Virus record (IMG/VR): IMGVR_UViG_3300031673_000065 | Span: 1-52,740 of that record | From: a virus | Reading direction: 5' to 3' (one strand) | Length of the DNA stretch: 52,740 nt | Shown here: piece after piece, positions 1-31,611 of the stretch | Layout: the number at the start of each line of letters is the position of its first letter | How positions within the stretch are numbered: the first letter of the stretch is position 1 | Made by a program: the position numbers and the translations under genes | Notes under the pieces: generated by a model | Told to the model about the DNA's origin: nothing | What the model saw: only the letters and a program-made list of their open reading frames with translations | Databases searched by the model: none

Positions 1-145
1 GGTGTTAACCCTGGCACAAGAGTTGGGTGTGCCGTTGCGTGAGTTGGCGCAGATATTGGGTGTCAATCTTACGCCGATTGACAACACCACGGCGGAAGCC
101 ATTGGCGACTTGGCCGTGTCTTTGGGCGCCGACATTTTTGAATTG
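1..145. repeat. Terminal direct repeat, left copy (circular overlap)
   Basis: These 145 bases recur at 52596-52740. The copies differ at one position only: C at 127, T at 52722. The repeat lies inside one continuous reading frame (tape measure). That fits the overlap left when a circular or circularly permuted genome is linearised, with one real polymorphism or error. A true terminal redundancy is less likely because it would duplicate part of a gene. Confidence 0.95.
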
Positions 146-4029: not shown

Positions 4030-4378
4030 CGATCCTCCTGCTGAACGGTTCGCCAACTTCGCCGGTTAGTGTGTCCTTGATCTTGCCGTTGCTGAGTGTG
4101 CGGTGTGGCGGTTCCGGCACGTAGCCTCCCAGCGCTTTGTCCAGCATCTTCACGGCATGTGCGTTTGTGCATTGGGTGTCCAGGTCGACAATCACCCGTT
4201 CAACATCACCCAGTTTGGCTTGAAGTTCTTCGGCTTTCGTTTTCCAGAAATAGACATCGCACTCAAGGTCGCTGATCAAACCCTTCTGCGCTTCGTTATG
4301 CTCACGCAACATCCGGCAGCTTTTCTCTAATTCAGGCCGTGTGCGCACTTTCTTCGGTTCGCGGAAATAGTCACTCAT
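4019..4378 (-). CDS. Coiled-coil hypothetical protein (119 aa)
   Basis: The start at 4378 (MSDYFREPKK) is preceded by AGGAGAgacgaa, matching the GGAG-nnn-GAA-ATG pattern used throughout this arm. Residues about 15-70 are strongly helical and charged (CRMLREHNEAQKGLISDLE, KAEELQAKLGDVERVIVDL), consistent with a coiled coil. The C-terminus is polar. I recognise no family. Its start overlaps the stop of the upstream methyltransferase by 4 bases. Confidence 0.55.
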   Translation of the reverse strand: MSDYFREPKKVRTRPELEKSCRMLREHNEAQKGLISDLECDVYFWKTKAEELQAKLGDVERVIVDLDTQCTNAHAVKMLDKALGGYVPEPPHRTLSNGKIKDTLTGEVGEPFSRRIDED

Positions 4379-12700: not shown

Positions 12701-13306
12701 TCAGCTTTCTTGCTGATGTGCTGTGAAGTTGTATTTTTTGCCGTCATGCTCGAAGACTTTCTTGCCTTCGGCTTTCAACGCCATCCGGAACCCAATGTGC
12801 TTGCCGAGTGGCAACCCAAGTTCCTCGAACGCTTTGGCAACGGAGTTGTAGGTCGTTTTGTTGACCGTCACAGCATGCCGGGTAGTGCGTGCTTTGAACA
12901 CGTTTGCGTCGGTCCAGGACTTGGCAATGGCTACGCTGGAATTGCGCGGCTCTGTTGGAGCTTTGGGCGCTTTGGGCGCTTTGGGCGCTTTGGGCGCTTT
13001 GGGCGCTTTGGGCGCTTTGGGCGCTTTGGCTGGCTTGTCGGTGGACTCGAACATCGGCACATCAGCCGCTGCCAACGCTTTCTCCACCCGCTCCACGGCG
13101 TAGGGTTTGCTGGGGAACTTCTTCACGTCCGAGCTGGAAGTGGCGTTGTAGATTTTGGCAAGTTCTGCCAGCGTCAAATTTTCCAGCTTGTCACAGAAAC
13201 CGTTGGGAATGCTTTCGCACGCCGCGTCGATCTCGCTGTTGGTTGCATTTGCTTTCATGCGGAAAGCGACTTTGTGTGTCTTGCTGTTGTATGTGATCAA
13301 TGTCAT
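12701..13306 (-). CDS. Lys-Ala-Pro repeat linker protein (201 aa), likely DNA-binding
   Basis: ATG 13306 is preceded by GGAGAAATGAA. An N-terminal region of about 95 residues is joined to a C-terminal domain of about 75 residues by a linker of eight KAP triplets, a histone H1-like basic hinge. The C-terminal part (SVAKAFEELGLPLGKHIGF, then a short FEHDGKKYNF strand pair) resembles small phage DNA-binding modules, but I do not recognise a family. It is the last gene before a strong terminator. A nucleoid-type or regulatory role is only inferred. Confidence 0.65.
   Translation of the reverse strand: MTLITYNSKTHKVAFRMKANATNSEIDAACESIPNGFCDKLENLTLAELAKIYNATSSSDVKKFPSKPYAVERVEKALAAADVPMFESTDKPAKAPKAPKAPKAPKAPKAPKAPKAPTEPRNSSVAIAKSWTDANVFKARTTRHAVTVNKTTYNSVAKAFEELGLPLGKHIGFRMALKAEGKKVFEHDGKKYNFTAHQQES
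12961..13023. repeat. 9-bp tandem repeat (CTTTGGGCG x 7)
   Basis: Seven perfect copies of CTTTGGGCG followed by a degenerate one. On the minus strand they encode the KAP tripeptide repeat. The unit is a multiple of three, so copy-number slippage would change linker length without breaking the frame. Confidence 0.95.
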
Positions 13307-14348: not shown

Positions 14349-14656
14349 TGTTGCATCCCCATGGCAGTTGGGCCTGAGCGTAAATCCAAAGCCCGGTAAA
14401 AACAAGCCTCCCGTTCATAGTCAGCTTCAATCACAGCAAACTCCACAGCACCAACAGGCACGCTGAAGCGCTCTGCCACGTACTCGGCAACTTCACTCTC
14501 CACCCTCTGCCAGTTGTCACCCCATGCGGGGCCGGACCATTCGCCTGCGTCGTATTGGCTGTCGCAAGCTTCTGCTTCTTCCCAGCCTTCCGTGCGCTGG
14601 GCCAAAATGCGGTTGTAAGCCCGCACGATGTATTTGGATCGTTGCAATGTGTTCAT
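14345..14656 (-). CDS. Hypothetical early protein (103 aa)
   Basis: Start 14656 has AACAGGAGAATGAA upstream and the repeated CCTTAACAGGAG leader. The protein is acidic and rich in Trp and Glu (GWEEAEACDSQYDAGEWSG), with a predicted alpha/beta end (VEYVAERF-like VAEYVAERFSVPVGAVEFAV). It has no recognisable family. It is translationally coupled to the zinc-ribbon gene downstream. Confidence 0.55.
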   Translation of the reverse strand: MNTLQRSKYIVRAYNRILAQRTEGWEEAEACDSQYDAGEWSGPAWGDNWQRVESEVAEYVAERFSVPVGAVEFAVIEADYEREACFYRALDLRSGPTAMGMQQ

Positions 14657-14679
14657 TTCATTCTCCTGTTAAGGTTGGT

Positions 14680-14901
14680 TTAACACGCTTCGCATTCAAT
14701 CAATGTGGTTCCATTGCGCTGGGCGTAGGACGCAAGTTCTTTAACAGCTTCCGTCCAGTTCTTGGCGCCATCGGCCCAAATGCCGTCAAAGGCTTCGTCG
14801 GCAAACACTGCAGTGCAGTTGCTGTCTTCAAGCCATTCGCCGTAACAGTGGACCTTTGGGTGGCCATTGCCAGGTTTGATGATAGTTACTTTTGGCCTCA
14901 T
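14680..14901 (-). CDS. Hypothetical early protein (73 aa)
   Basis: ATG 14901 is chosen because GAGGAGCATGAA lies upstream; an earlier ATG at 14928 lacks a ribosome-binding site and would overlap the neighbouring gene. The protein has basic, beta-like N-terminal sequence (RPKVTIIKPGNGHPKVH) followed by a helix (WTEAVKELASYAQRNG) and a C-terminal CEAC. No family recognised. Confidence 0.55.
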   Translation of the reverse strand: MRPKVTIIKPGNGHPKVHCYGEWLEDSNCTAVFADEAFDGIWADGAKNWTEAVKELASYAQRNGTTLIECEAC

Positions 14902-14911
14902 TTCATGCTCC

Positions 14912-15259
14912 TCAATAGTTGACTTCATAAAGCCGCGTGCCGCTATTCACACGAGACCGCAAGTAACCTTTCCTGACCATCCTGCTCATAACTTTCTGTG
15001 TCAGCCCGATGTCCCACGAGATGCCTTGGTTGAGTGCTTCGGCGAGTTTGTGCCAGTTGGCAACGGTGTTGGACAGCGAGTGAGCTGCGATGAAAGCACG
15101 GGCGAGTGACATTTGAACCATCGCTTCGTTCCATGACTTGGTTTGAACGTTGGCAAGCTCCCAGGCTTCGCTCATGATTTCGCGGGTCTTGAGTTCGAAC
15201 TCATGAACCTCCAGCAGGGAGTTGAATTCTTCCGGGTTGGTTTGGTATGTTGTTTTCAT
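14912..15259 (-). CDS. Hypothetical early protein with winged-helix-like C-terminus (115 aa)
   Basis: AACAGGAGTACGAA precedes the start at 15259. The protein is mostly helical. The C-terminal stretch ISWDIGLTQKVMSRMVRKG followed by YLRSRVNSGTRLYEV looks like a small winged helix, with a helix-turn-helix followed by a beta wing. That would suit a DNA-binding regulator, but this is a pattern judgement only. Its leader shares about 40 bases of near-identical sequence with the leader of the next gene upstream. Confidence 0.55.
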   Translation of the reverse strand: MKTTYQTNPEEFNSLLEVHEFELKTREIMSEAWELANVQTKSWNEAMVQMSLARAFIAAHSLSNTVANWHKLAEALNQGISWDIGLTQKVMSRMVRKGYLRSRVNSGTRLYEVNY

Positions 15260-15298
15260 TTCGTACTCCTGTTAAGGTGTGTAATAATAAAAGGTCAA

Positions 15299-15607
15299 TC
15301 AGCCGTAATAGTACCTAGCGATCAGTTTGGCTGCCTCCCGGAATTCGGGACAGTAATTGCCTTTGTGCTCGTGGCACTCGCCGTCGCAGATGCGGTCAGC
15401 CATGCAATCTGTCAGCGTGTCGCGCATTACGGTGTCGTCCGGTTCGCGGTCATACTCTTGCGTCACGAATTCGTCTCCAGAAGCTTCTGCTTCCATCCAA
15501 GCCGCTGTGACATCAACGACGCCAACAGAGTCTATCAGGTCCGGCAGAAGCTGTTCTGCCAACTGCCTGTACTCATCAACCAACAATTCAACTAATAAGT
15601 TGTCCAT
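15299..15607 (-). CDS. Hypothetical early protein (102 aa)
   Basis: Start 15607 has AACAGGAGAATGAA upstream. The protein is very acidic (LVELLVDEYRQLAEQLLPDL, then EASGDEFVTQEYDREPDD) with a cysteine-bearing segment (DCMADRICDGECHEHKGNYC) of four Cys and two His that could bind a metal. It is the first protein gene downstream of the candidate structured RNA and may lie on the same transcript. Confidence 0.55.
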   Translation of the reverse strand: MDNLLVELLVDEYRQLAEQLLPDLIDSVGVVDVTAAWMEAEASGDEFVTQEYDREPDDTVMRDTLTDCMADRICDGECHEHKGNYCPEFREAAKLIARYYYG

Positions 15608-15649
15608 TTCATTCTCCTGTTAAGGTGTGTGTAATAAAAAGGTGTAAAA

Positions 15650-16180
15650 TGCGGATTCTCGATCACGCCCGATCCGGCCGGGTGCTCACCATTGGGTGGT
15701 GTCATTTTGTGCGGTGGTATTTGATTCTAGCCATGCCCTTTAAAAAAGGTCACATCAAACATGGCACCGCGTTTGCGTGTATGCCGCCCGGATGGCTAAT
15801 CCGGAGGAGCGCTTTGCCGTGCTGCTCCCGCGTGCGGGCCGATCTTTCACCGAATGCTGAGCTGCTACTGAAATCCGAATGGATAGCACTGATCAAAACT
15901 ATATTGCGGTTGTGCCTTTCGCGGGGCCGCCTTTGTTGCGCGGCGCTGCTCGGCGCTCGTCAGAGATCGACTGCGACACCCCCAACGCCCGCCCGGTTGG
16001 CTTGGGCCCGCCTCGCGTTAGGTTTTTTTGTTGCCGTCGCCTCCCGGCGATGGGTCTTGGTACCTAACTCGGCGGTCCCCTGCCCCTGGTTGGGTGGAGA
16101 CTTTTGGCCTCGCGGCCTGGGCGCGCATGCCCAGCAGGCTTCTTGTATCCCGGTCCTCGTGGCCCGGCTCCCCTAAGGGA
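15650..16180 (-). ncRNA. Candidate large structured RNA, about 530 nt
   Basis: No convincing gene occupies this stretch, yet it is GC-rich (42 of 60 bases at 15961-16020) and full of inverted repeats. Examples: 16017-16023 with 16062-16068 (7 bp), enclosing 16037-16041 with 16046-16050; 16106-16109 with 16114-16117; 16118-16122 with 16129-16133; 15788-15793 with 15799-15804; 15730-15735 with 15760-15765. Read on the minus strand, two hairpin loops become GNRA tetraloops (GGGA, GCGA) and single-stranded gaps are A-rich, as expected of RNA made leftward. A sigma70-like promoter abuts its 5' end. I cannot assign it to a known class; large phage RNAs such as GOLLD or ROOL are the sort of thing to compare. 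Ends are approximate. Confidence 0.6.
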
Positions 16181-16185
16181 CTTTA

Positions 16186-16214
16186 ATTATGCGCCATTTT
16201 CACAAAAAAGGCAA
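16186..16214 (-). promoter_or_regulatory. Sigma70-like promoter for the structured RNA
   Basis: On the minus strand TTGCCT (16214-16209) is separated by 17 bases from CATAAT (16191-16186). Transcription would begin near 16180, at the first stem of the candidate RNA. The -35 element is embedded in a 15-mer, TTTTGCCTTTTTTGT (16216-16202), that occurs exactly once more, ahead of the rightward terminase operon. Confidence 0.6.
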
Positions 16215-16252
16215 AACTTTTTGAATAATTATATATCAGCATAAACAATCAG

Positions 16253-17164
16253 TTACACAGCCCTTGCGCGGCCTCTGGCATAGCTATCCGCCAGCAGTAG
16301 CCGCTTTATTACGGCGCAGTCGTGCACTACGTCGTCCAAAAGTATGTTGCGCCAAGTGCCGAATCGGCCCAAGGAATAAACACCAAACTGGTCTGACAAA
16401 CGGTAAATGAAGCCACGGCGGAAGGCTTCGTCGATTGGGGCGATCTTGCCGTAACGCTGCGAAGAGATTTCGCACTGGTTCAAACGAACAGGTCCCAAGC
16501 CAAAAGCCAACTGCACGGACACAAGGTCTCCTTGTTGCAAATCGTCCACAGCTTCAATGATCAACGTGCTGCCAGTGATGCTTGCGCGGTAAACCAGCGT
16601 GTCGACGAATGGAAAGTAAACGGTCTGGTGCACGTCGCAGCCTGTTCCCAGGTCCAGCCGATAGACTTTGATTGGGTTGAAACTGAATGTTGGTGCGGCT
16701 TGCTCGCCAACCTGCTTCGCCACGATGCCCATCGGCACGGTGGAGATCACACTTGCTGCTGTTGGGAGCGCTTTGAAATTGAAGGGTGTGCCGTACTCAA
16801 CCCGGCTGCTAAGATTTTCTCGCAACTGCTGAATGAAGTTCATCGGCGCGATCCAGCGGTGACAAGCATCAACGTTCCATACGCTGCGCGGCAGGATCTT
16901 GCCGGTGCACTTCATGGAGTAAGAGTTTGCGGCGCAAATGTTCGGCTCAATAAAACGGTTGCCGTCCCAGATGCCCTTGCGCACTGTCACAGCGCGGAAC
17001 GGAATGCCCGTAGCCTCACTCACAACCTCCGAACGGAACCGCAACAATGCCCTGTGCTGTCCCAGCTCTGCTTCCGGTGTTGCTTCTAGCACGCGGGCCT
17101 GCGGGAAGATGTGCGCGGCTATCATGCCGGTCAGCCCGGCGCCAACTATGGTTATGTTGTTCAT
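16253..17164 (-). CDS. FAD/NAD-binding oxidoreductase, UDP-galactopyranose mutase-like
   Basis: The N-terminus NITIVGAGLTGMIAAHIF contains the GxGxxG dinucleotide-binding motif, followed by an acidic end of strand 2 (RVLEATPE). Near the C-terminus FGVYSLGRFGTWRN resembles the GRxGxxxY/W flavin contact of UDP-galactopyranose mutase and amine-oxidase folds. At 303 residues it is shorter than UGM (about 370). Substrate is unknown: a sugar, an amine or a modified nucleotide are all possible. It overlaps the upstream gene by ATGA and ends 73 bases before the RNA start. Confidence 0.7.
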   Translation of the reverse strand: MNNITIVGAGLTGMIAAHIFPQARVLEATPEAELGQHRALLRFRSEVVSEATGIPFRAVTVRKGIWDGNRFIEPNICAANSYSMKCTGKILPRSVWNVDACHRWIAPMNFIQQLRENLSSRVEYGTPFNFKALPTAASVISTVPMGIVAKQVGEQAAPTFSFNPIKVYRLDLGTGCDVHQTVYFPFVDTLVYRASITGSTLIIEAVDDLQQGDLVSVQLAFGLGPVRLNQCEISSQRYGKIAPIDEAFRRGFIYRLSDQFGVYSLGRFGTWRNILLDDVVHDCAVIKRLLLADSYARGRARAV

Positions 17165-19866: not shown

Positions 19867-20685
19867 TTAAAATGCTTCACCGTTATCTTCTGCTGCTGCG
19901 GAGTCCAGGTCTTCGTGTTGGACTCTGACCTTGCCGGCGACGATCTGCTCATAAAACTTTTTGCCGAGCATGTAAACTTCCGCATTGATGACCCCACCGG
20001 GGTTGGTGTTCAACTCTTCATTGGGCCGGATGGCAATGCCGTGCCACTCGCCTTTGTTGTTGGATTCCTTTTGGGAGGAGACGGTGTATGCGCGGGCCCA
20101 ACTGGGAGGTGTGATCACCTGGTCACCGTGCTCAATCTTGAAGTTATTGATCTGGGTGATCCAGTTTTTGGACTTTTTGATCTGGGTGGAACCGCATGCC
20201 AGTACCGCAGGGGTCCAACCGCCAACCGCGTCCTGCATCAGCACGTAATGCTGCCGGGTGTCTTTCAAGGATTCAATCTCACTAGCCCGAATGTCCAAGC
20301 CGTCCGGCGAACGCTCTGCTTCGCCGTCAGCCAACATCTCTTCCACTTCCAGCGGGGAGTAGGAACCTTTGAACCCACCGCCTGCTGCACGGTCAACCCA
20401 ACGCAAAAACTGCCGCTCAAAATAAACGGGTATCACGTTGACGGTTTTGAACAGCTCGTTGGTGACGGAATTGATGAACAAACCGGGCCGTGCGCCTTCC
20501 ACTGTTTCCAACTGCGGGGAGAGACCTTGGAGGCAAATGATGAAGGGTACGGCGAATGAATCTTTGTCTGCGTTTTCGATGCCTTTGCCGGCGTCGGAAA
20601 GCATTGTGGAGAACAGGTCATCGGGTGCGAGTTCTTGCTTGCCTTTGGCCTTCAATGCGGTGGTCTTCTTCTTTGTTGCTGTCAT
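19867..20685 (-). CDS. Conserved phage replication-associated protein, possible ssDNA-binding (272 aa)
   Basis: A lysine-rich N-terminus (TATKKKTTALKAKGKQE) is followed by an AVPFIICLQGLSPQ segment, a GARPGLFINSVTNELFKTVN strand cluster and VIPVYFERQFLRWVDR. I recall this layout from many phage genomes, next to primase-helicase genes, usually without an assigned function. The acidic C-terminal tail (HEDLDSAAAEDNGEAF) is reminiscent of single-strand binding proteins. The role is inference. CAGGAGCAACAATC precedes the ATG at 20685. Confidence 0.55.
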   Translation of the reverse strand: MTATKKKTTALKAKGKQELAPDDLFSTMLSDAGKGIENADKDSFAVPFIICLQGLSPQLETVEGARPGLFINSVTNELFKTVNVIPVYFERQFLRWVDRAAGGGFKGSYSPLEVEEMLADGEAERSPDGLDIRASEIESLKDTRQHYVLMQDAVGGWTPAVLACGSTQIKKSKNWITQINNFKIEHGDQVITPPSWARAYTVSSQKESNNKGEWHGIAIRPNEELNTNPGGVINAEVYMLGKKFYEQIVAGKVRVQHEDLDSAAAEDNGEAF

Positions 20686-20708
20686 GATTGTTGCTCCTGT
20701 TGTGTGTG

Positions 20709-21254
20709 TTAAGAGATTACTGCTTTGGTGATTGGCATTGCGCCGAATAATTCTAACGGTACTGCTGTACCGCGCTCCAGCTGCTCCTTGAGGAAGCTGG
20801 CTAGTGTGGAGGGATGGACGGCTTCCTTGGAGCTGACTTTTGCACCGGAAGCGGTGAGCTCGTCGTAGATGGTTTTGGCTTGGGTGTATTCGTCCTTGCC
20901 AAACTGACCGGTGACAGTCAACTTGATCAGGTCTGCGTGACCGTTGTTGACCAGCCAGTCCATCGCCTCCTCGTAGTGCTTGGCGGGGATTGAAGCGTAG
21001 ACTTTGGTTGTGAGCTTGATCTTCTTGCCGTCTGTCAGGGTGATGGAACTTAGACCTAGCTCCTGCATGAAAGCGGGAATGGACTCCTGCTCTATTGAGA
21101 CCAGTTCTTTCTTCAGCTGCTTGAGTTGTTCTTCAGCTGCTGCTACTGCTGCTTGCTTGTTTTGCATTAGGTTGGCGTAACGCGCAAGTTGTCCGAGCCG
21201 TTCTTCATTGATTGCGGTAATGCTCGGTGCCGCGAATGGATCTGTTCTTGCCAT
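20709..21254 (-). CDS. Conserved phage early protein, coiled-coil plus C-terminal domain (181 aa)
   Basis: ATG 21254 follows AGGAGGccatc. Residues 30-65 form a coiled coil (QAAVAAAEEQLKQLKKELV). The remainder (MQELGLSSITLTDGKKIKL, DWLVNNGHADLIK, VHPSTLASFLKEQLERG, PLELFGAM) matches a widespread but uncharacterised phage family whose genes usually accompany replication genes. It is the first gene of the leftward transcript and has a long stem-loop in its 5' leader. Function not known. Confidence 0.65.
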   Translation of the reverse strand: MARTDPFAAPSITAINEERLGQLARYANLMQNKQAAVAAAEEQLKQLKKELVSIEQESIPAFMQELGLSSITLTDGKKIKLTTKVYASIPAKHYEEAMDWLVNNGHADLIKLTVTGQFGKDEYTQAKTIYDELTASGAKVSSKEAVHPSTLASFLKEQLERGTAVPLELFGAMPITKAVIS

Positions 21255-21277
21255 GATGGCCTCCTTTGGTTGCATAA

Positions 21278-27736: not shown

Positions 27737-30242
27737 CAAGGTGCGTCACGCCATCGTTGACGAGTACGACCCCAACCAGCCGCGTGCTCCGAAAGGTGAC
27801 CCAGACGGCGGGAAGTGGACGAGTGAAGGTGGCGGGTCAAAACGTGAAGGTGGGTTCGTGGTTCCAGGTTTGCCGGGCGTGTTTTACAGCCAAGAAGAAT
27901 ACAAGGCTGCTAGTGAAAAACAGGAAGCGGAGTTAAAAAAGACCACGTTCAAGACAAGCAAATTTCGGGACGACGACAACGGTGAGAAAGTTACGGTAGA
28001 AAGCTGGAAGGCTGATAACCGTGGACTGTACCGTGTCAAAATCATAAGCCCGAAGTATGGTGAGTACAGCGGTCTCCACCGTGAAGACTCCAGAGGCGAC
28101 GCTGAGTATAAAGCGTGGTTTGTTTGGAATTCAACAAAGACGGGAAAGATCAGTTGGGGCGACAGCGCCATCGTTGACGAGTACGACCCCAACCAGCCGC
28201 GCAAGTCTAAAGGCGATCCCGACGGTGGGAAGTGGACGAAGTCGGGCGCTGGTGGTGAGAAAGGGGAAGGCAGCACGGAGATTAGCGCTGTCTTGAAAAA
28301 GAGAGCGAAGATGTACAATACATCTGCCAAGATTATAGAGTTGAGCGGCGACCGCTTTGGGAAACGCGGACTGTACCTGAACAACCGGGACAACCGGCGT
28401 TCCACAACTTTCACACTTCCCTTTTCAGAAGCGAAGGCGACAGCATGGATCGTGAAGAACGGCCGGAAGTATGGCGACAGCTCAACCGTTGACGAGTACA
28501 ACCCCAACCAACCCCGTGCTCCCAAAGGGGATCCGGACGGCGGCCAGTGGACGAGTGAAGGTGGTAGTGGTTCTTCTGAGAAACCGATCGGTAAACCTAC
28601 AGAAAAACAAAAATTAGATATTCAGGCCATCCGCCAACAGATCGAAGCTCTGGTCGCTGTAAATGCATTCGCCAAAAATCCTGATATCACAAAGACAATT
28701 AATGAATACCGGAAAAGCATTGACCAAATAAAGGCATCATATGGCGACAGCTCAACCGTTGATGAGTACAACCCCAACCAACCCCGTGCTCCCAAAGGCG
28801 ATCCCGATGGCGGCCAGTGGACGAGTGAAGGCGGTTCTTCCGGTGATCCTGACAGACCTGCCAGCGTCAAAGAGGAACATCTCAGGTGGCTGAATTCAAT
28901 TCGTGAGTCAGGGCAAATAAACATGTTTGGCGCGGGGGAATACCTTCGGCAAGCCTATCCTGAATTGAACAAGAACCAGGCTCGTGAGGTTCTCAGCTAT
29001 TGGATGAAATCGTTTGGTGGTCGGCAAAGAGCACTTGGATATAAAGAGGCGGGAGGCGAACTCAAAGCGCTAGGAATTAAGCCTGTGGGAGGTGAACGTA
29101 GAGCACTTGGCTATCGTTATCCGGGTGGCGACAGCGCGATGATGATGTTTGACGCTGTTACCGTTGATGCCTCTCGTGCCAGGTGGACCAAGGACGGCTA
29201 TGTGGTGGCGGAAGCTTCTGTCGCACGCACGGGCGTCCAGTTATACACCGCGGCTGAGTTGGGGATGGACGGTGATCCCGACAAAGTGATCCGGGTCTAC
29301 AGGCCACCGGAAGAAGTCTTCTCCAAAGACGCAATGGCGTCCTACGCGCATCGACCTGTTACGGTTGATCACCCTGGCGTGATGGTTGATGCGTCGAACT
29401 GGAAACAATACGCCAAAGGGCAGACCGGCGACGAAGTTGTGCGGGATGGCGATTTTGTCCGGGTGCCGCTAATGTTGCTGGACGCTGACGCTATTTCAGA
29501 ATGGAAGAATGGGCGGCGTGAATTGTCAATGGGTTACACAATGGACCTCAAGATTGCTGATGGGGTCACTGATGACGGCCAGAAGTACGATGCCGTGCAA
29601 ACGAATTTACGTATGAACCATCTAGCGCTTGTTTCCCGCGCTAGGGGTGGTTCTCAATTGAGACTGGGAGACACTAAACTAGAGGACAGAAGTATGGATG
29701 TGAAGCTGACCACGATTACGGTGGACGGGCTTTCCGTTGAAACTACTGATGCCGGTGTGCAGGCCATTTTCAAGCTCAATAAGGAATTGGTCGACACACG
29801 TAAGGTAGCAGAAGATTCAGCGGTTGCTCATGCTGCAACCCTTGCCGCCAAGGACAAGGAACTTGCAACAAAAGATGCCGAGATTGATCTGCTGAAGGGC
29901 AAAGTGCTTTCAGATGCAAACTTGGACAAGATGGTCAAGGAACGGGCTGATCTGATTTCAGTAGCCAAACAGGTTGCTGATAAGGATTACACCGGCATGG
30001 CCGCCAATGACATTCGCAAAGCCGCGGTTGTTGCTCAACTTGGGCAAGCAGCGGTTGATGGGAAGTCGGAAGAGTACATCACGGCTCGGTTTGATATCCT
30101 GGCTGAAGATGCAAACCAGGATCCAGTGCGCAAAGTTCTTCGCACCGGTGACGCAAACAGGACGACAACGGTTGATCAGGCGCACGCAGGCCTGGTTCAG
30201 AACCTTGAGAATGCCTGGAAACAGACGAAGGAGGTGGCGTAA
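27726..30242 (+). CDS. Modular polyprotein: four linker-separated modules, DUF2213-type protease, scaffold-like tail
   Basis: 838 residues, GTG start with AAGGAG upstream. Four near-identical linkers, VDEY(D/N)PNQPRxxKGDPDGG(K/Q)WT, begin at residues about 11, 150, 255 and 345. Each is followed by a different small module of about 55-110 residues, and the later ones end in GDS(A/S). From about residue 470 a DUF2213-like prohead protease follows (GYVVAEASVARTGVQLYT, YAHRPVTVDHPG, RRELSMGYTMDL, MNHLALVSRARGG). The last 170 residues are a Lys/Ala/Glu coiled-coil tail resembling a scaffold. Maturation would normally cleave protease from scaffold. The extra modules may be capsid-internal cargo released at the linkers (inference). 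Module 4 is related to the early gene at 13734-13925. Confidence 0.85.
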   Translation: MEINKVRHAIVDEYDPNQPRAPKGDPDGGKWTSEGGGSKREGGFVVPGLPGVFYSQEEYKAASEKQEAELKKTTFKTSKFRDDDNGEKVTVESWKADNRGLYRVKIISPKYGEYSGLHREDSRGDAEYKAWFVWNSTKTGKISWGDSAIVDEYDPNQPRKSKGDPDGGKWTKSGAGGEKGEGSTEISAVLKKRAKMYNTSAKIIELSGDRFGKRGLYLNNRDNRRSTTFTLPFSEAKATAWIVKNGRKYGDSSTVDEYNPNQPRAPKGDPDGGQWTSEGGSGSSEKPIGKPTEKQKLDIQAIRQQIEALVAVNAFAKNPDITKTINEYRKSIDQIKASYGDSSTVDEYNPNQPRAPKGDPDGGQWTSEGGSSGDPDRPASVKEEHLRWLNSIRESGQINMFGAGEYLRQAYPELNKNQAREVLSYWMKSFGGRQRALGYKEAGGELKALGIKPVGGERRALGYRYPGGDSAMMMFDAVTVDASRARWTKDGYVVAEASVARTGVQLYTAAELGMDGDPDKVIRVYRPPEEVFSKDAMASYAHRPVTVDHPGVMVDASNWKQYAKGQTGDEVVRDGDFVRVPLMLLDADAISEWKNGRRELSMGYTMDLKIADGVTDDGQKYDAVQTNLRMNHLALVSRARGGSQLRLGDTKLEDRSMDVKLTTITVDGLSVETTDAGVQAIFKLNKELVDTRKVAEDSAVAHAATLAAKDKELATKDAEIDLLKGKVLSDANLDKMVKERADLISVAKQVADKDYTGMAANDIRKAAVVAQLGQAAVDGKSEEYITARFDILAEDANQDPVRKVLRTGDANRTTTVDQAHAGLVQNLENAWKQTKEVA
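27753..28840 (+). repeat. Four copies of an approximately 85-base linker repeat
   Basis: Copies at about 27753-27838, 28170-28245, 28485-28570 and 28755-28840. The last two differ at only about four positions over some 88 bases, including the preceding ATGGCGACAGCTCAACC. Copies 1 and 2 share GTTGACGAGTACGACCCC. Such DNA identity suggests recent duplication and allows module gain or loss by homologous recombination. Confidence 0.92.
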
Positions 30243-30676
30243 TGCCTACTTTACAAAGCACTTATGCTGACAATATTGGCGCAGCTTATAAAGGTGCACT
30301 CGCTAATTTGGAGCCGAAGGTTATCATTTCACGCACCGTGGAAGATTCCGGCGGAATAGACTTCGGCCTTGCGGTTATGCAGGGCACTGAAGACATGGGT
30401 TGCGTGGTCAGCGACGCCAGCGCGTTCCTCGGTGTTACCGTGCGCGATCAGTCGGTTGATCCGACAGCGCCAGATACGTTTGAATACCAGGCTGAAGCCC
30501 GCATCATCACGAAAGGTGTGATTTGGGTGGCAAATTCTGGCGGTGTTGCGGCGGGTGATCCTGTTGTAGCGCTGGCAGACGGCGCATTGGGAACGGGTTC
30601 TAGCCCGTTAGTGGAAGGTGCGCGGTGGGATACCACGGCAACCACCGGCAATCTTGCGCAACTGCGTCTGGGCTAA
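30242..30676 (+). CDS. Capsid decoration / cement protein (DUF2190-like)
   Basis: A 144-residue beta-rich protein between protease and capsid genes. GLAVMQGTEDMGC, FLGVTVRDQSVDP, EARIITKGVIWVANSGGVA and GDPVVALADGAL are typical of the DUF2190 phage cement fold, which sits on the capsid surface. Joined to the preceding gene by a TAATG overlap. High level expected, next to the capsid gene. Confidence 0.78.
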   Translation: MPTLQSTYADNIGAAYKGALANLEPKVIISRTVEDSGGIDFGLAVMQGTEDMGCVVSDASAFLGVTVRDQSVDPTAPDTFEYQAEARIITKGVIWVANSGGVAAGDPVVALADGALGTGSSPLVEGARWDTTATTGNLAQLRLG

Positions 30677-30687
30677 GGAGAGAATAC

Positions 30688-31611
30688 ATGAGAACTTTTG
30701 ACGCACAAGCTGCACTCGGTTTCGTAATTTCACAAACCGCGCATGTTGAATCCAGTGTTTACGCTATCAAGTATGCGGATATTCAGTATCCCGCTTTGAT
30801 TCCTGTCGACACTTCCGCTCACCCGTTTGCAAAGACGGTGACTTACTTCTCGTCTGACAAAGCTGGCGCGGCTCGCTGGTTGAACGGCAACGCTGACGAC
30901 ATTCCGATGGCCGATACTGAGATGACTCAGTTTGAAACCGCGGTTTGGACAGCGGGTATTGGCTATGGTTACGGCTGGGAAGAAATCAACCAGGCTCAAA
31001 TGCTGGGTATTGGTCTGGCTAATGATAAGGCCAACGCTGCCCGTCGTGCTTCTGAAGAGATGATTGAACGAATCGCTCTTGAAGGTGACACGACCAAAGG
31101 CATTGAAGGTCTGTTTGATCATTCTGCTGTTACCGCTACTGGCGCAACAACCGGCGATTGGAACGGCGGTGTGACCACTCCGGACGAAGTGATTGAGGAC
31201 GTCAACGACGCACTGACCAATGTGCAAACGGCGACTAATAACATTGTCCTGGCTGACACTCTGTTGCTGCCGTACAGCAAATGGAACTACCTGGCTTCCC
31301 GGCGCTTGACCGACACCAATATGACCATTCTTGAGTTCATCCGGCGCAACAATGTGTACACCGCGCAAACGGGTTCGCCATTGGTCATTCGTGCGACTCG
31401 TAAGCTTGATACCGCTGGTGTCAGTGCCACGGCACGTATGGTGGCTTATCGTCGCAACCCGGAAGTGCTGAAGCTGCACATGCCAATGCCGCACCGCTTC
31501 TTGCCCGTTTGGCAGGCCGGTCCATTGCGTTGGGAAATCCCCGGTGTGATGCGTCTGGGTGGGCTTGACATCCGCTTGCCGAGTGAAGTCTCCTACGTCG
31601 ACGGCATTTAG
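30688..31611 (+). CDS. Major capsid protein (DUF2184-like)
   Basis: A 307-residue protein; ATG 30688 follows AAGGAGAGAATAC. The longer frame (from 30625) overlaps the decoration gene and has no ribosome-binding site. YAIKYADIQYPALIPVDTS near the N-terminus, GIGYGYGWEEINQAQMLGI in the middle and MVAYRRNPEVLKLHMPMPH near the end match the DUF2184 capsid pattern (HK97-like fold). GLFDHSAVTATGA is also typical. It has no evident N-terminal delta domain, consistent with a separate scaffold in the upstream polyprotein. Confidence 0.88.
   Translation: MRTFDAQAALGFVISQTAHVESSVYAIKYADIQYPALIPVDTSAHPFAKTVTYFSSDKAGAARWLNGNADDIPMADTEMTQFETAVWTAGIGYGYGWEEINQAQMLGIGLANDKANAARRASEEMIERIALEGDTTKGIEGLFDHSAVTATGATTGDWNGGVTTPDEVIEDVNDALTNVQTATNNIVLADTLLLPYSKWNYLASRRLTDTNMTILEFIRRNNVYTAQTGSPLVIRATRKLDTAGVSATARMVAYRRNPEVLKLHMPMPHRFLPVWQAGPLRWEIPGVMRLGGLDIRLPSEVSYVDGI

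What the first reader, a model, noticed from the sequence alone, without database searches (positions are those of the whole stretch)
15650..16214. Candidate large non-coding RNA with its own promoter
A 530-base GC-rich block without a convincing gene contains at least nine stem-loops. These include a 7-bp stem (16017-16023 with 16062-16068) enclosing a second hairpin. Read leftward, two loops become GNRA tetraloops (GGGA, GCGA) and unpaired stretches are A-rich. A TTGCCT-17-CATAAT promoter ends six bases before the first stem. I do not recognise a known family. In phages, large structured RNAs (GOLLD, ROOL, OLE and HEARO are known large classes) are rare and mostly of unknown function, so this could be new.
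Basis: partly seen in the sequence, partly recalled or inferred. Interest (0 to 1): 0.88.

Follow-up and report, generated by a model that had tools for sequence, protein, structure and literature searches.

The report
Orphan large structured phage RNA
A 540-base stretch behind a genuine phage promoter codes for no protein and looks like a large folded RNA that belongs to no known family; it has no detectable relatives, but several distantly related phages carry large RNAs in a similar spot, each ending in an RNA that cuts itself.

Summary
The observation largely holds: 15608-16252 is a 645-base gene-free gap in a leftward operon. It is GC-rich (0.61 against 0.52), its reading frames fail a codon-usage test, and the named stem, tetraloops and promoter are all there. 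The promoter is the strongest point. The same motif occurs 19 times in 12 of 34 related phage records and never in shuffles, usually 52-90 bases before a gene; here the gene is 607 bases away. The minus strand folds modestly better than shuffles (z -2.3 to -2.6), its unpaired bases are 44% A, and its A-over-T excess is the most extreme in the window. Individual hairpins and local 120-base windows are not above chance. A nested pseudoknot at 15711-15770 is the most unusual local feature.

There is no Rfam match and no homologue in any collection searched, so covariation could not be tested. Three distant relatives carry different large gene-free RNAs that end in a known self-cleaving ribozyme (two hammerheads, one twister) just before the next gene. 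The window RNA has no recognisable ribozyme.

Best reading: a real, orphan large structured RNA heading an operon, probably released from it by cleavage. GOLLD or ROOL membership is not supported.

The parts
16186..16214 (-). Promoter TTGCCT-17-CATAAT, a member of a promoter class shared with related phages (TTGCYTTT-15..17-ATAATT)
   Evidence: 20 sites in 35 records, 0 in 10 dinucleotide shuffles; relatives have it usually 52-90 bases before an ORF
15644..16182 (-). Candidate large structured RNA, about 540 nt; 5' end inferred from the -10 box, 3' end undefined (about 15640-15700)
   Evidence: noncoding, full-length fold z -2.3 to -2.6, unpaired A 44%, most A-skewed stretch of the window; local windows not exceptional
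16168..16180 (-). First stem-loop (TCCC-TTAG-GGGA) at the start of the transcript
   Evidence: fold; a promoter in relative L024 is also followed by a CCCCTTCGGGG hairpin
16106..16117 (-). Hairpin GGCC-GCGA-GGCC with a GNRA tetraloop
16017..16068 (-). 7-bp stem GTTAGGT/ACCTAAC enclosing a hairpin with a GGGA tetraloop and an A-rich internal strand
15711..15770 (-). Nested H-type pseudoknot: GCGGT/ACCGC encloses GCCATG/CATGGC crossed by TTTGAT/ATCAAA, with an inner hairpin CCTTT-TTT-AAAGG
   Evidence: unenclosed form in 6.6% and enclosed form in 0.12% of shuffled RNAs; motif defined after the fact
15299..15607 (-). First downstream gene of the operon (102 aa, no known family); positive codon-usage score
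12661..12692 (-). First strong terminator-like hairpin downstream, just before thyX; likely end of the operon
16253..17164 (-). Upstream gene, phrog_4828-like (303 aa); in relatives L038 and L028 a like promoter follows it and leads directly into a gene

Best explanation
The minus strand of about 15644-16182 encodes a large (about 540 nt) structured noncoding RNA. Transcription starts at a phage-family promoter just upstream of the first stem and probably continues into the small genes at 15607-12701, so the RNA is the head of a polycistronic transcript. The RNA folds into several hairpin domains with A-rich joints and a 3' pseudoknot. It most likely acts as a separate structured RNA, in the manner of the large phage RNAs GOLLD and ROOL, after cleavage near 15640-15700 frees it from the mRNA. 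Shown here: noncoding, promoter class, composition, modest excess fold stability, similar layout in three relatives that have a ribozyme at the junction. Inferred: that the RNA is made, that it is released, and that it works in trans. What it does at the molecular level remains inference by analogy.
For: Promoter class with 20 sites against 0 in shuffles, and a promoter-to-gene distance of 607 where relatives mostly have 52-90. No ORF in the gap passes codon usage or hits Pfam. Strand-specific signs: strongest A-over-T excess of the window, 44% A among unpaired bases, z -2.56 with 0 of 100 shuffles. Enclosed 3' pseudoknot in 0.12% of shuffles. Relatives: L042 (G027) and L096 (G040) have large gene-free blocks ending in type II hammerheads (47.6 and 40.4 bits, gathering score 37), and G028 has one ending in a twister-P5 match (37.4 bits, gathering 37.6, E 4.8e-6), each just before the next start codon. 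L096 has nearly the same fold z as the window RNA (-2.52).
Against: No homologue anywhere, so no covariation test. Local fold stability and hairpin count are ordinary. No recognisable ribozyme or terminator at the 3' end of the window RNA, so release is not supported by a known element. The relatives' RNAs show no reliable sequence similarity to it (p 0.44 and 0.04), and they sit next to different genes.
Confidence: 0.5

Rival explanations
1. A very long cis-acting leader: the structured RNA stays attached and controls translation or stability of the downstream small genes (protective 5' structure, attenuator or sensor).
For: The RNA lies between the promoter and the first gene with no terminator found in between; a 5'-terminal hairpin follows the promoter here and in L024.
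Against: About 540 nt is long for a leader when the same promoter class in relatives mostly has leaders of a few tens of bases; no riboswitch or leader family matches; the first gene has its own Shine-Dalgarno within a short leader that recurs before other genes of the operon.
Confidence: 0.22
2. Noncoding filler: a foreign or decayed insertion between the ancestral promoter and the operon, with stems that GC-rich sequence gives by chance.
For: Relatives L038 and L028 have a like promoter directly followed by a gene, so the block looks lineage-specific; hairpin number and local fold z are ordinary; no homologues.
Against: Full-length z of -2.3 to -2.6, extreme strand-specific A bias placed in unpaired positions, and the enclosed pseudoknot; a decayed gene would be expected to keep some database match, and none was found by protein or DNA search.
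Confidence: 0.2
3. A DNA-level element such as a replication origin or packaging site with hairpins.
For: Intergenic position in the replication-gene half of the phage, near primase and polymerase genes.
Against: No iterons and no long inverted repeats in the region; strand-specific composition and the promoter point to RNA.
Confidence: 0.05
4. A protein gene, for example the 183-aa plus-strand ORF 15625-16176.
For: The frame is open for 552 bases.
Against: Codon score -0.14, the lowest of all ORFs tested; no Pfam hit and no tblastn relative in phages or viral contigs; antisense to the operon.
Confidence: 0.02

Closest known systems
GOLLD RNA
   Same: Large structured RNA of phages and prophages with unknown function, held together by A-minor contacts (PMC12286853; dispensable in the one prophage tested, cited in PMC7567579)
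   Different: No Rfam match at any threshold; about 540 nt against often over 800; no tRNA in this window
ROOL RNA
   Same: Phage-encoded, complex fold with pseudoknots, unknown function (PMC12286853)
   Different: No Rfam match; no tRNA island here
ICP1 ~800-nt noncoding transcript
   Same: Large ORF-less phage transcript between genes, in a phage without tRNAs (PMC7567579)
   Different: No sequence match to ICP1 in the phage collection search
Ribozyme-terminated large RNAs in relatives (L042, L096, G028; this work)
   Same: Large gene-free block directly before a gene; similar fold z and A bias in L096
   Different: They end in type II hammerhead or twister ribozymes, the window RNA does not; no reliable sequence similarity
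Hammerhead ribozymes flanking phage genes (Perreault et al. 2011, PMC3088659)
   Same: RNA elements at gene junctions in phage operons
   Different: Short processing elements; no hammerhead found in this window

Membership tests
GOLLD RNA | Match to the curated covariance model | tested here: not met
   Rfam gathering scan of the window and E-value scans of 15550-16300 and 15600-15880: no GOLLD hit
GOLLD RNA | Proximity to tRNA genes (frequent, not obligatory) | tested here: not met
   No tRNA in the 52.7-kb window
ROOL RNA | Match to the curated covariance model | tested here: not met
ROOL RNA | Homo-oligomeric RNA nanocage | not testable with these tools
   Needs cryo-EM or native gels
OLE and HEARO RNAs | Match to the curated covariance models | tested here: not met
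Type II hammerhead ribozyme at the RNA's 3' end (as in relatives) | Rfam RF02276 match | tested here: not met
   0 matches in the window at E <= 1; hits over the cut-off in relatives G027, G003 and G040
Twister, pistol, HDV-like and other curated self-cleaving ribozymes | Rfam match near the 3' end | tested here: not met
   Only an sRNA match at E 3.8 in 15600-15880
Conserved structured RNA (any family) | Covariation in homologues | not testable with these tools
   No homologue found in viral contigs, phage or plasmid records, or the relatives' records
Phage promoter class of this group | TTGCYTTT-15..17-ATAATT a short distance upstream of genes | tested here: met
   motif met, but the distance to the gene here is 607 instead of mostly 52-90

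The most novel reading that the evidence does not exclude
This group of phages carries a hypervariable large-RNA cassette near the head of operons, cut from the mRNA by interchangeable self-cleaving ribozymes; in this phage the cutting element is the enclosed pseudoknot at 15711-15770, which would be a new class of self-cleaving ribozyme or processing signal.
Probability: 0.1. Interest if true: 0.85.

Novelty: new variant of a known kind. Interest (0 to 1): 0.5.

Why it matters
Large structured phage RNAs such as GOLLD and ROOL are known but their roles are not. An unnamed one behind a recurrent phage promoter, with layout-alike but unrelated RNAs in distant relatives that end in self-cleaving ribozymes, suggests such RNAs may be more numerous and more varied than the curated families show, and gives a concrete handle (the ribozyme junction) to find more of them and ask why they are cut loose.

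Tried and rejected
Rfam at gathering and permissive thresholds: no family. DNA homologues in phage and plasmid collections: the only hits at E below 1 were a 39-base GC-rich match inside mycobacteriophage primase genes, E 0.7, read as chance; none in plasmids. A 17-base motif scan gave two unrelated hits inside a protein gene that reads like peptide deformylase. Whole records of 45 relatives: only 11-26-base chance-level matches; the two best of the first set, which I opened, lie in coding-looking sequence. A DNA polymerase scan brought a closer phage (L057, 67%) whose contig ends before the region. Scans with the primase and with the neighbouring small gene found nothing. Translating the open plus-strand frame to scan six spots at once: nothing. 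ThyX scan (80 loci): nothing. An apparent nhmmer match in L038 was the shared promoter followed by a coding gene. A by-eye resemblance of 5' domains between the window RNA and L042 (GATACA.GA.GC) failed shuffle tests (p 0.22-0.44 local, 0.03 global on the first 110 bases). A 168-base noncoding gap in L006 looked similar by eye; no Rfam hit. A first genome-wide fold scan timed out and was repeated with shorter windows. A first promoter count used the wrong spacing and was redone.

Full report
What is there. The window is a virus record of 52,740 bases with phage portal, terminase, DNA polymerase and primase genes. Around the finding the genes that score as coding run leftward. Between a phrog_4828-like gene (16253-17164, minus) and a 102-aa gene (15299-15607, minus) lies a gap of 645 bases. 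The stem 16017-16023/16062-16068, the inner hairpin, the GGGA and GCGA loops on the minus strand and the TTGCCT-17-CATAAT promoter are all present as described. The open frames in the gap score -0.14 to +0.02 on codon usage where the 27 genes tested in the window score 0.026 to 0.23, have no Pfam match and, for the longest, no tblastn relative.

Is it more than chance. The promoter is. In 35 phage records including the window, the motif TTG[CA][CT]TTT-15..17-ATAATT occurs 20 times, against none in 10 dinucleotide shuffles of the same records; 19 of these are in 12 relatives, two of which appear to share the same locus. Most lie 52-90 bases before an ORF with a Shine-Dalgarno (two lie 187 and 198 bases away); the window's lies 607 bases away. 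In L038 and L028 a promoter of this kind follows the same phrog_4828-like gene and leads straight into a gene, so the block looks like a lineage-specific insertion between an older promoter and its operon. Base composition is unusual too: the 300 bases from 15901 have the strongest A-over-T excess for the minus strand in the whole window, at GC 0.64. The full-length minus strand folds with z -2.27 (1 of 100 shuffles) or -2.56 (0 of 100), and 44% of its unpaired bases are A. The number of perfect hairpins (5 against 3.3) and the z of 120-base pieces (+0.1 to -1.0) are ordinary. The plus strand folds with z about -1.7 to -2.0. I therefore treat the fold evidence as modest and the promoter and composition as the firmer signs.

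A pseudoknot. At 15711-15770 (minus) GCCATG/CATGGC is crossed by TTTGAT/ATCAAA, with an inner hairpin CCTTT-TTT-AAAGG and an enclosing stem GCGGT/ACCGC. A crossing pair of this kind turns up in 6.6% of shuffled RNAs and the enclosed form in 0.12%; in 1.47 million bases of phage records 56 enclosed cases occur on the two strands, so roughly a 1% chance in 540 bases. I defined the motif after seeing it, which weakens these numbers.

Relatives. No homologue of the RNA was found in phage or plasmid records, in a 17-base motif scan and a six-site scan of viral contigs, in the records of 45 relatives or among the loci brought by phrog_4828, DNA polymerase and ThyX scans. Covariation, the proper test of a structured RNA, is therefore not available. 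Scanning relatives for gene-free, A-biased blocks did find other large RNA-like blocks. In L042 (record G027) a block of about 420 bases ends in a type II hammerhead 20 bases before a start codon (47.6 bits, gathering 37). In L096 (G040) about 650 bases of A-rich sequence end in another (40.4 bits). In G028 about 500 purine-rich bases end in a twister-P5 match (37.4 bits, gathering 37.6, E 4.8e-6) before the next gene. These blocks show no reliable sequence similarity to the window RNA (p 0.44 for L042 and 0.04 for L096; no shared 9-mer with G028), are next to different genes, and have no match in the phage collection. Perreault et al. (PMC3088659) describe hammerheads flanking genes in prophages as possible processing elements; here they also bound large gene-free blocks. 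The window has no hammerhead and no other curated ribozyme at the 3' end.

How it probably works. Transcription from the promoter gives an RNA whose first 540 nt fold, and which then runs into the small genes down to a strong terminator-like hairpin at 12692-12661. In the relatives a ribozyme would separate RNA from mRNA. By analogy I expect separation here near 15640-15700, by a host nuclease or by an element not in Rfam, leaving a stand-alone RNA. That step, and the RNA's role, are inference. The main alternatives are a long cis-acting leader and a noncoding insertion with chance stems.

Comparison with known kinds. It works like, at most, the large phage RNAs GOLLD and ROOL (PMC12286853) or the unnamed 800-nt RNA of ICP1 (PMC7567579): large, ORF-less, phage-borne, of unknown function. 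It is not a member of GOLLD, ROOL, OLE or HEARO by the Rfam test, and there is no tRNA nearby. I rate it a new variant of a known kind, with the reservation that a single sequence without homologues cannot establish a family.

Noticed in passing
L042:3966-4385 (record G027), second hammerhead at L042:4918-4986: Gene-free block of about 345 bases plus a type II hammerhead before a small gene, and a second hammerhead two genes on.
   Followed up: partly
L096:930-1580 (record G040, about 20600-21255): About 560-base A-rich gene-free block ending in a type II hammerhead shortly before a start codon; no Rfam hit other than the hammerhead.
   Followed up: partly
L155:11230-11830 minus (record G028, about 30230-30830); also L240:3961-4240: About 500-base purine-rich noncoding block ending in a twister-P5 match; further twister-like copies appear, by eye, between the following genes.
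   Followed up: partly
L095:1501-1574 (record G003 4244-4317): Type II hammerhead (44.8 bits) between two small genes just upstream of the phrog_4828-like gene.
   Followed up: no
L133:9321-10000 (record G012): Roughly 105-base noncoding tandem repeats with a conserved CCCATATAACCA...TATGGGCC pair; recalls the repeat RNAs of type III toxin-antitoxin systems by eye only.
   Followed up: no
L006:4576-4743: 168-base noncoding, hairpin-rich gap directly after thyX in a relative; no Rfam match.
   Followed up: partly
window 14650-14683, 15253-15295, 15601-15643: Near-identical 34-39-base intergenic leaders (CCTTAACAGGAG) before several genes of the operon, one of them right after the RNA.
   Followed up: no
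window 12939-13038: 9-base tandem repeat inside the phrog_4730-like gene, giving an APK repeat in the protein.
   Followed up: no
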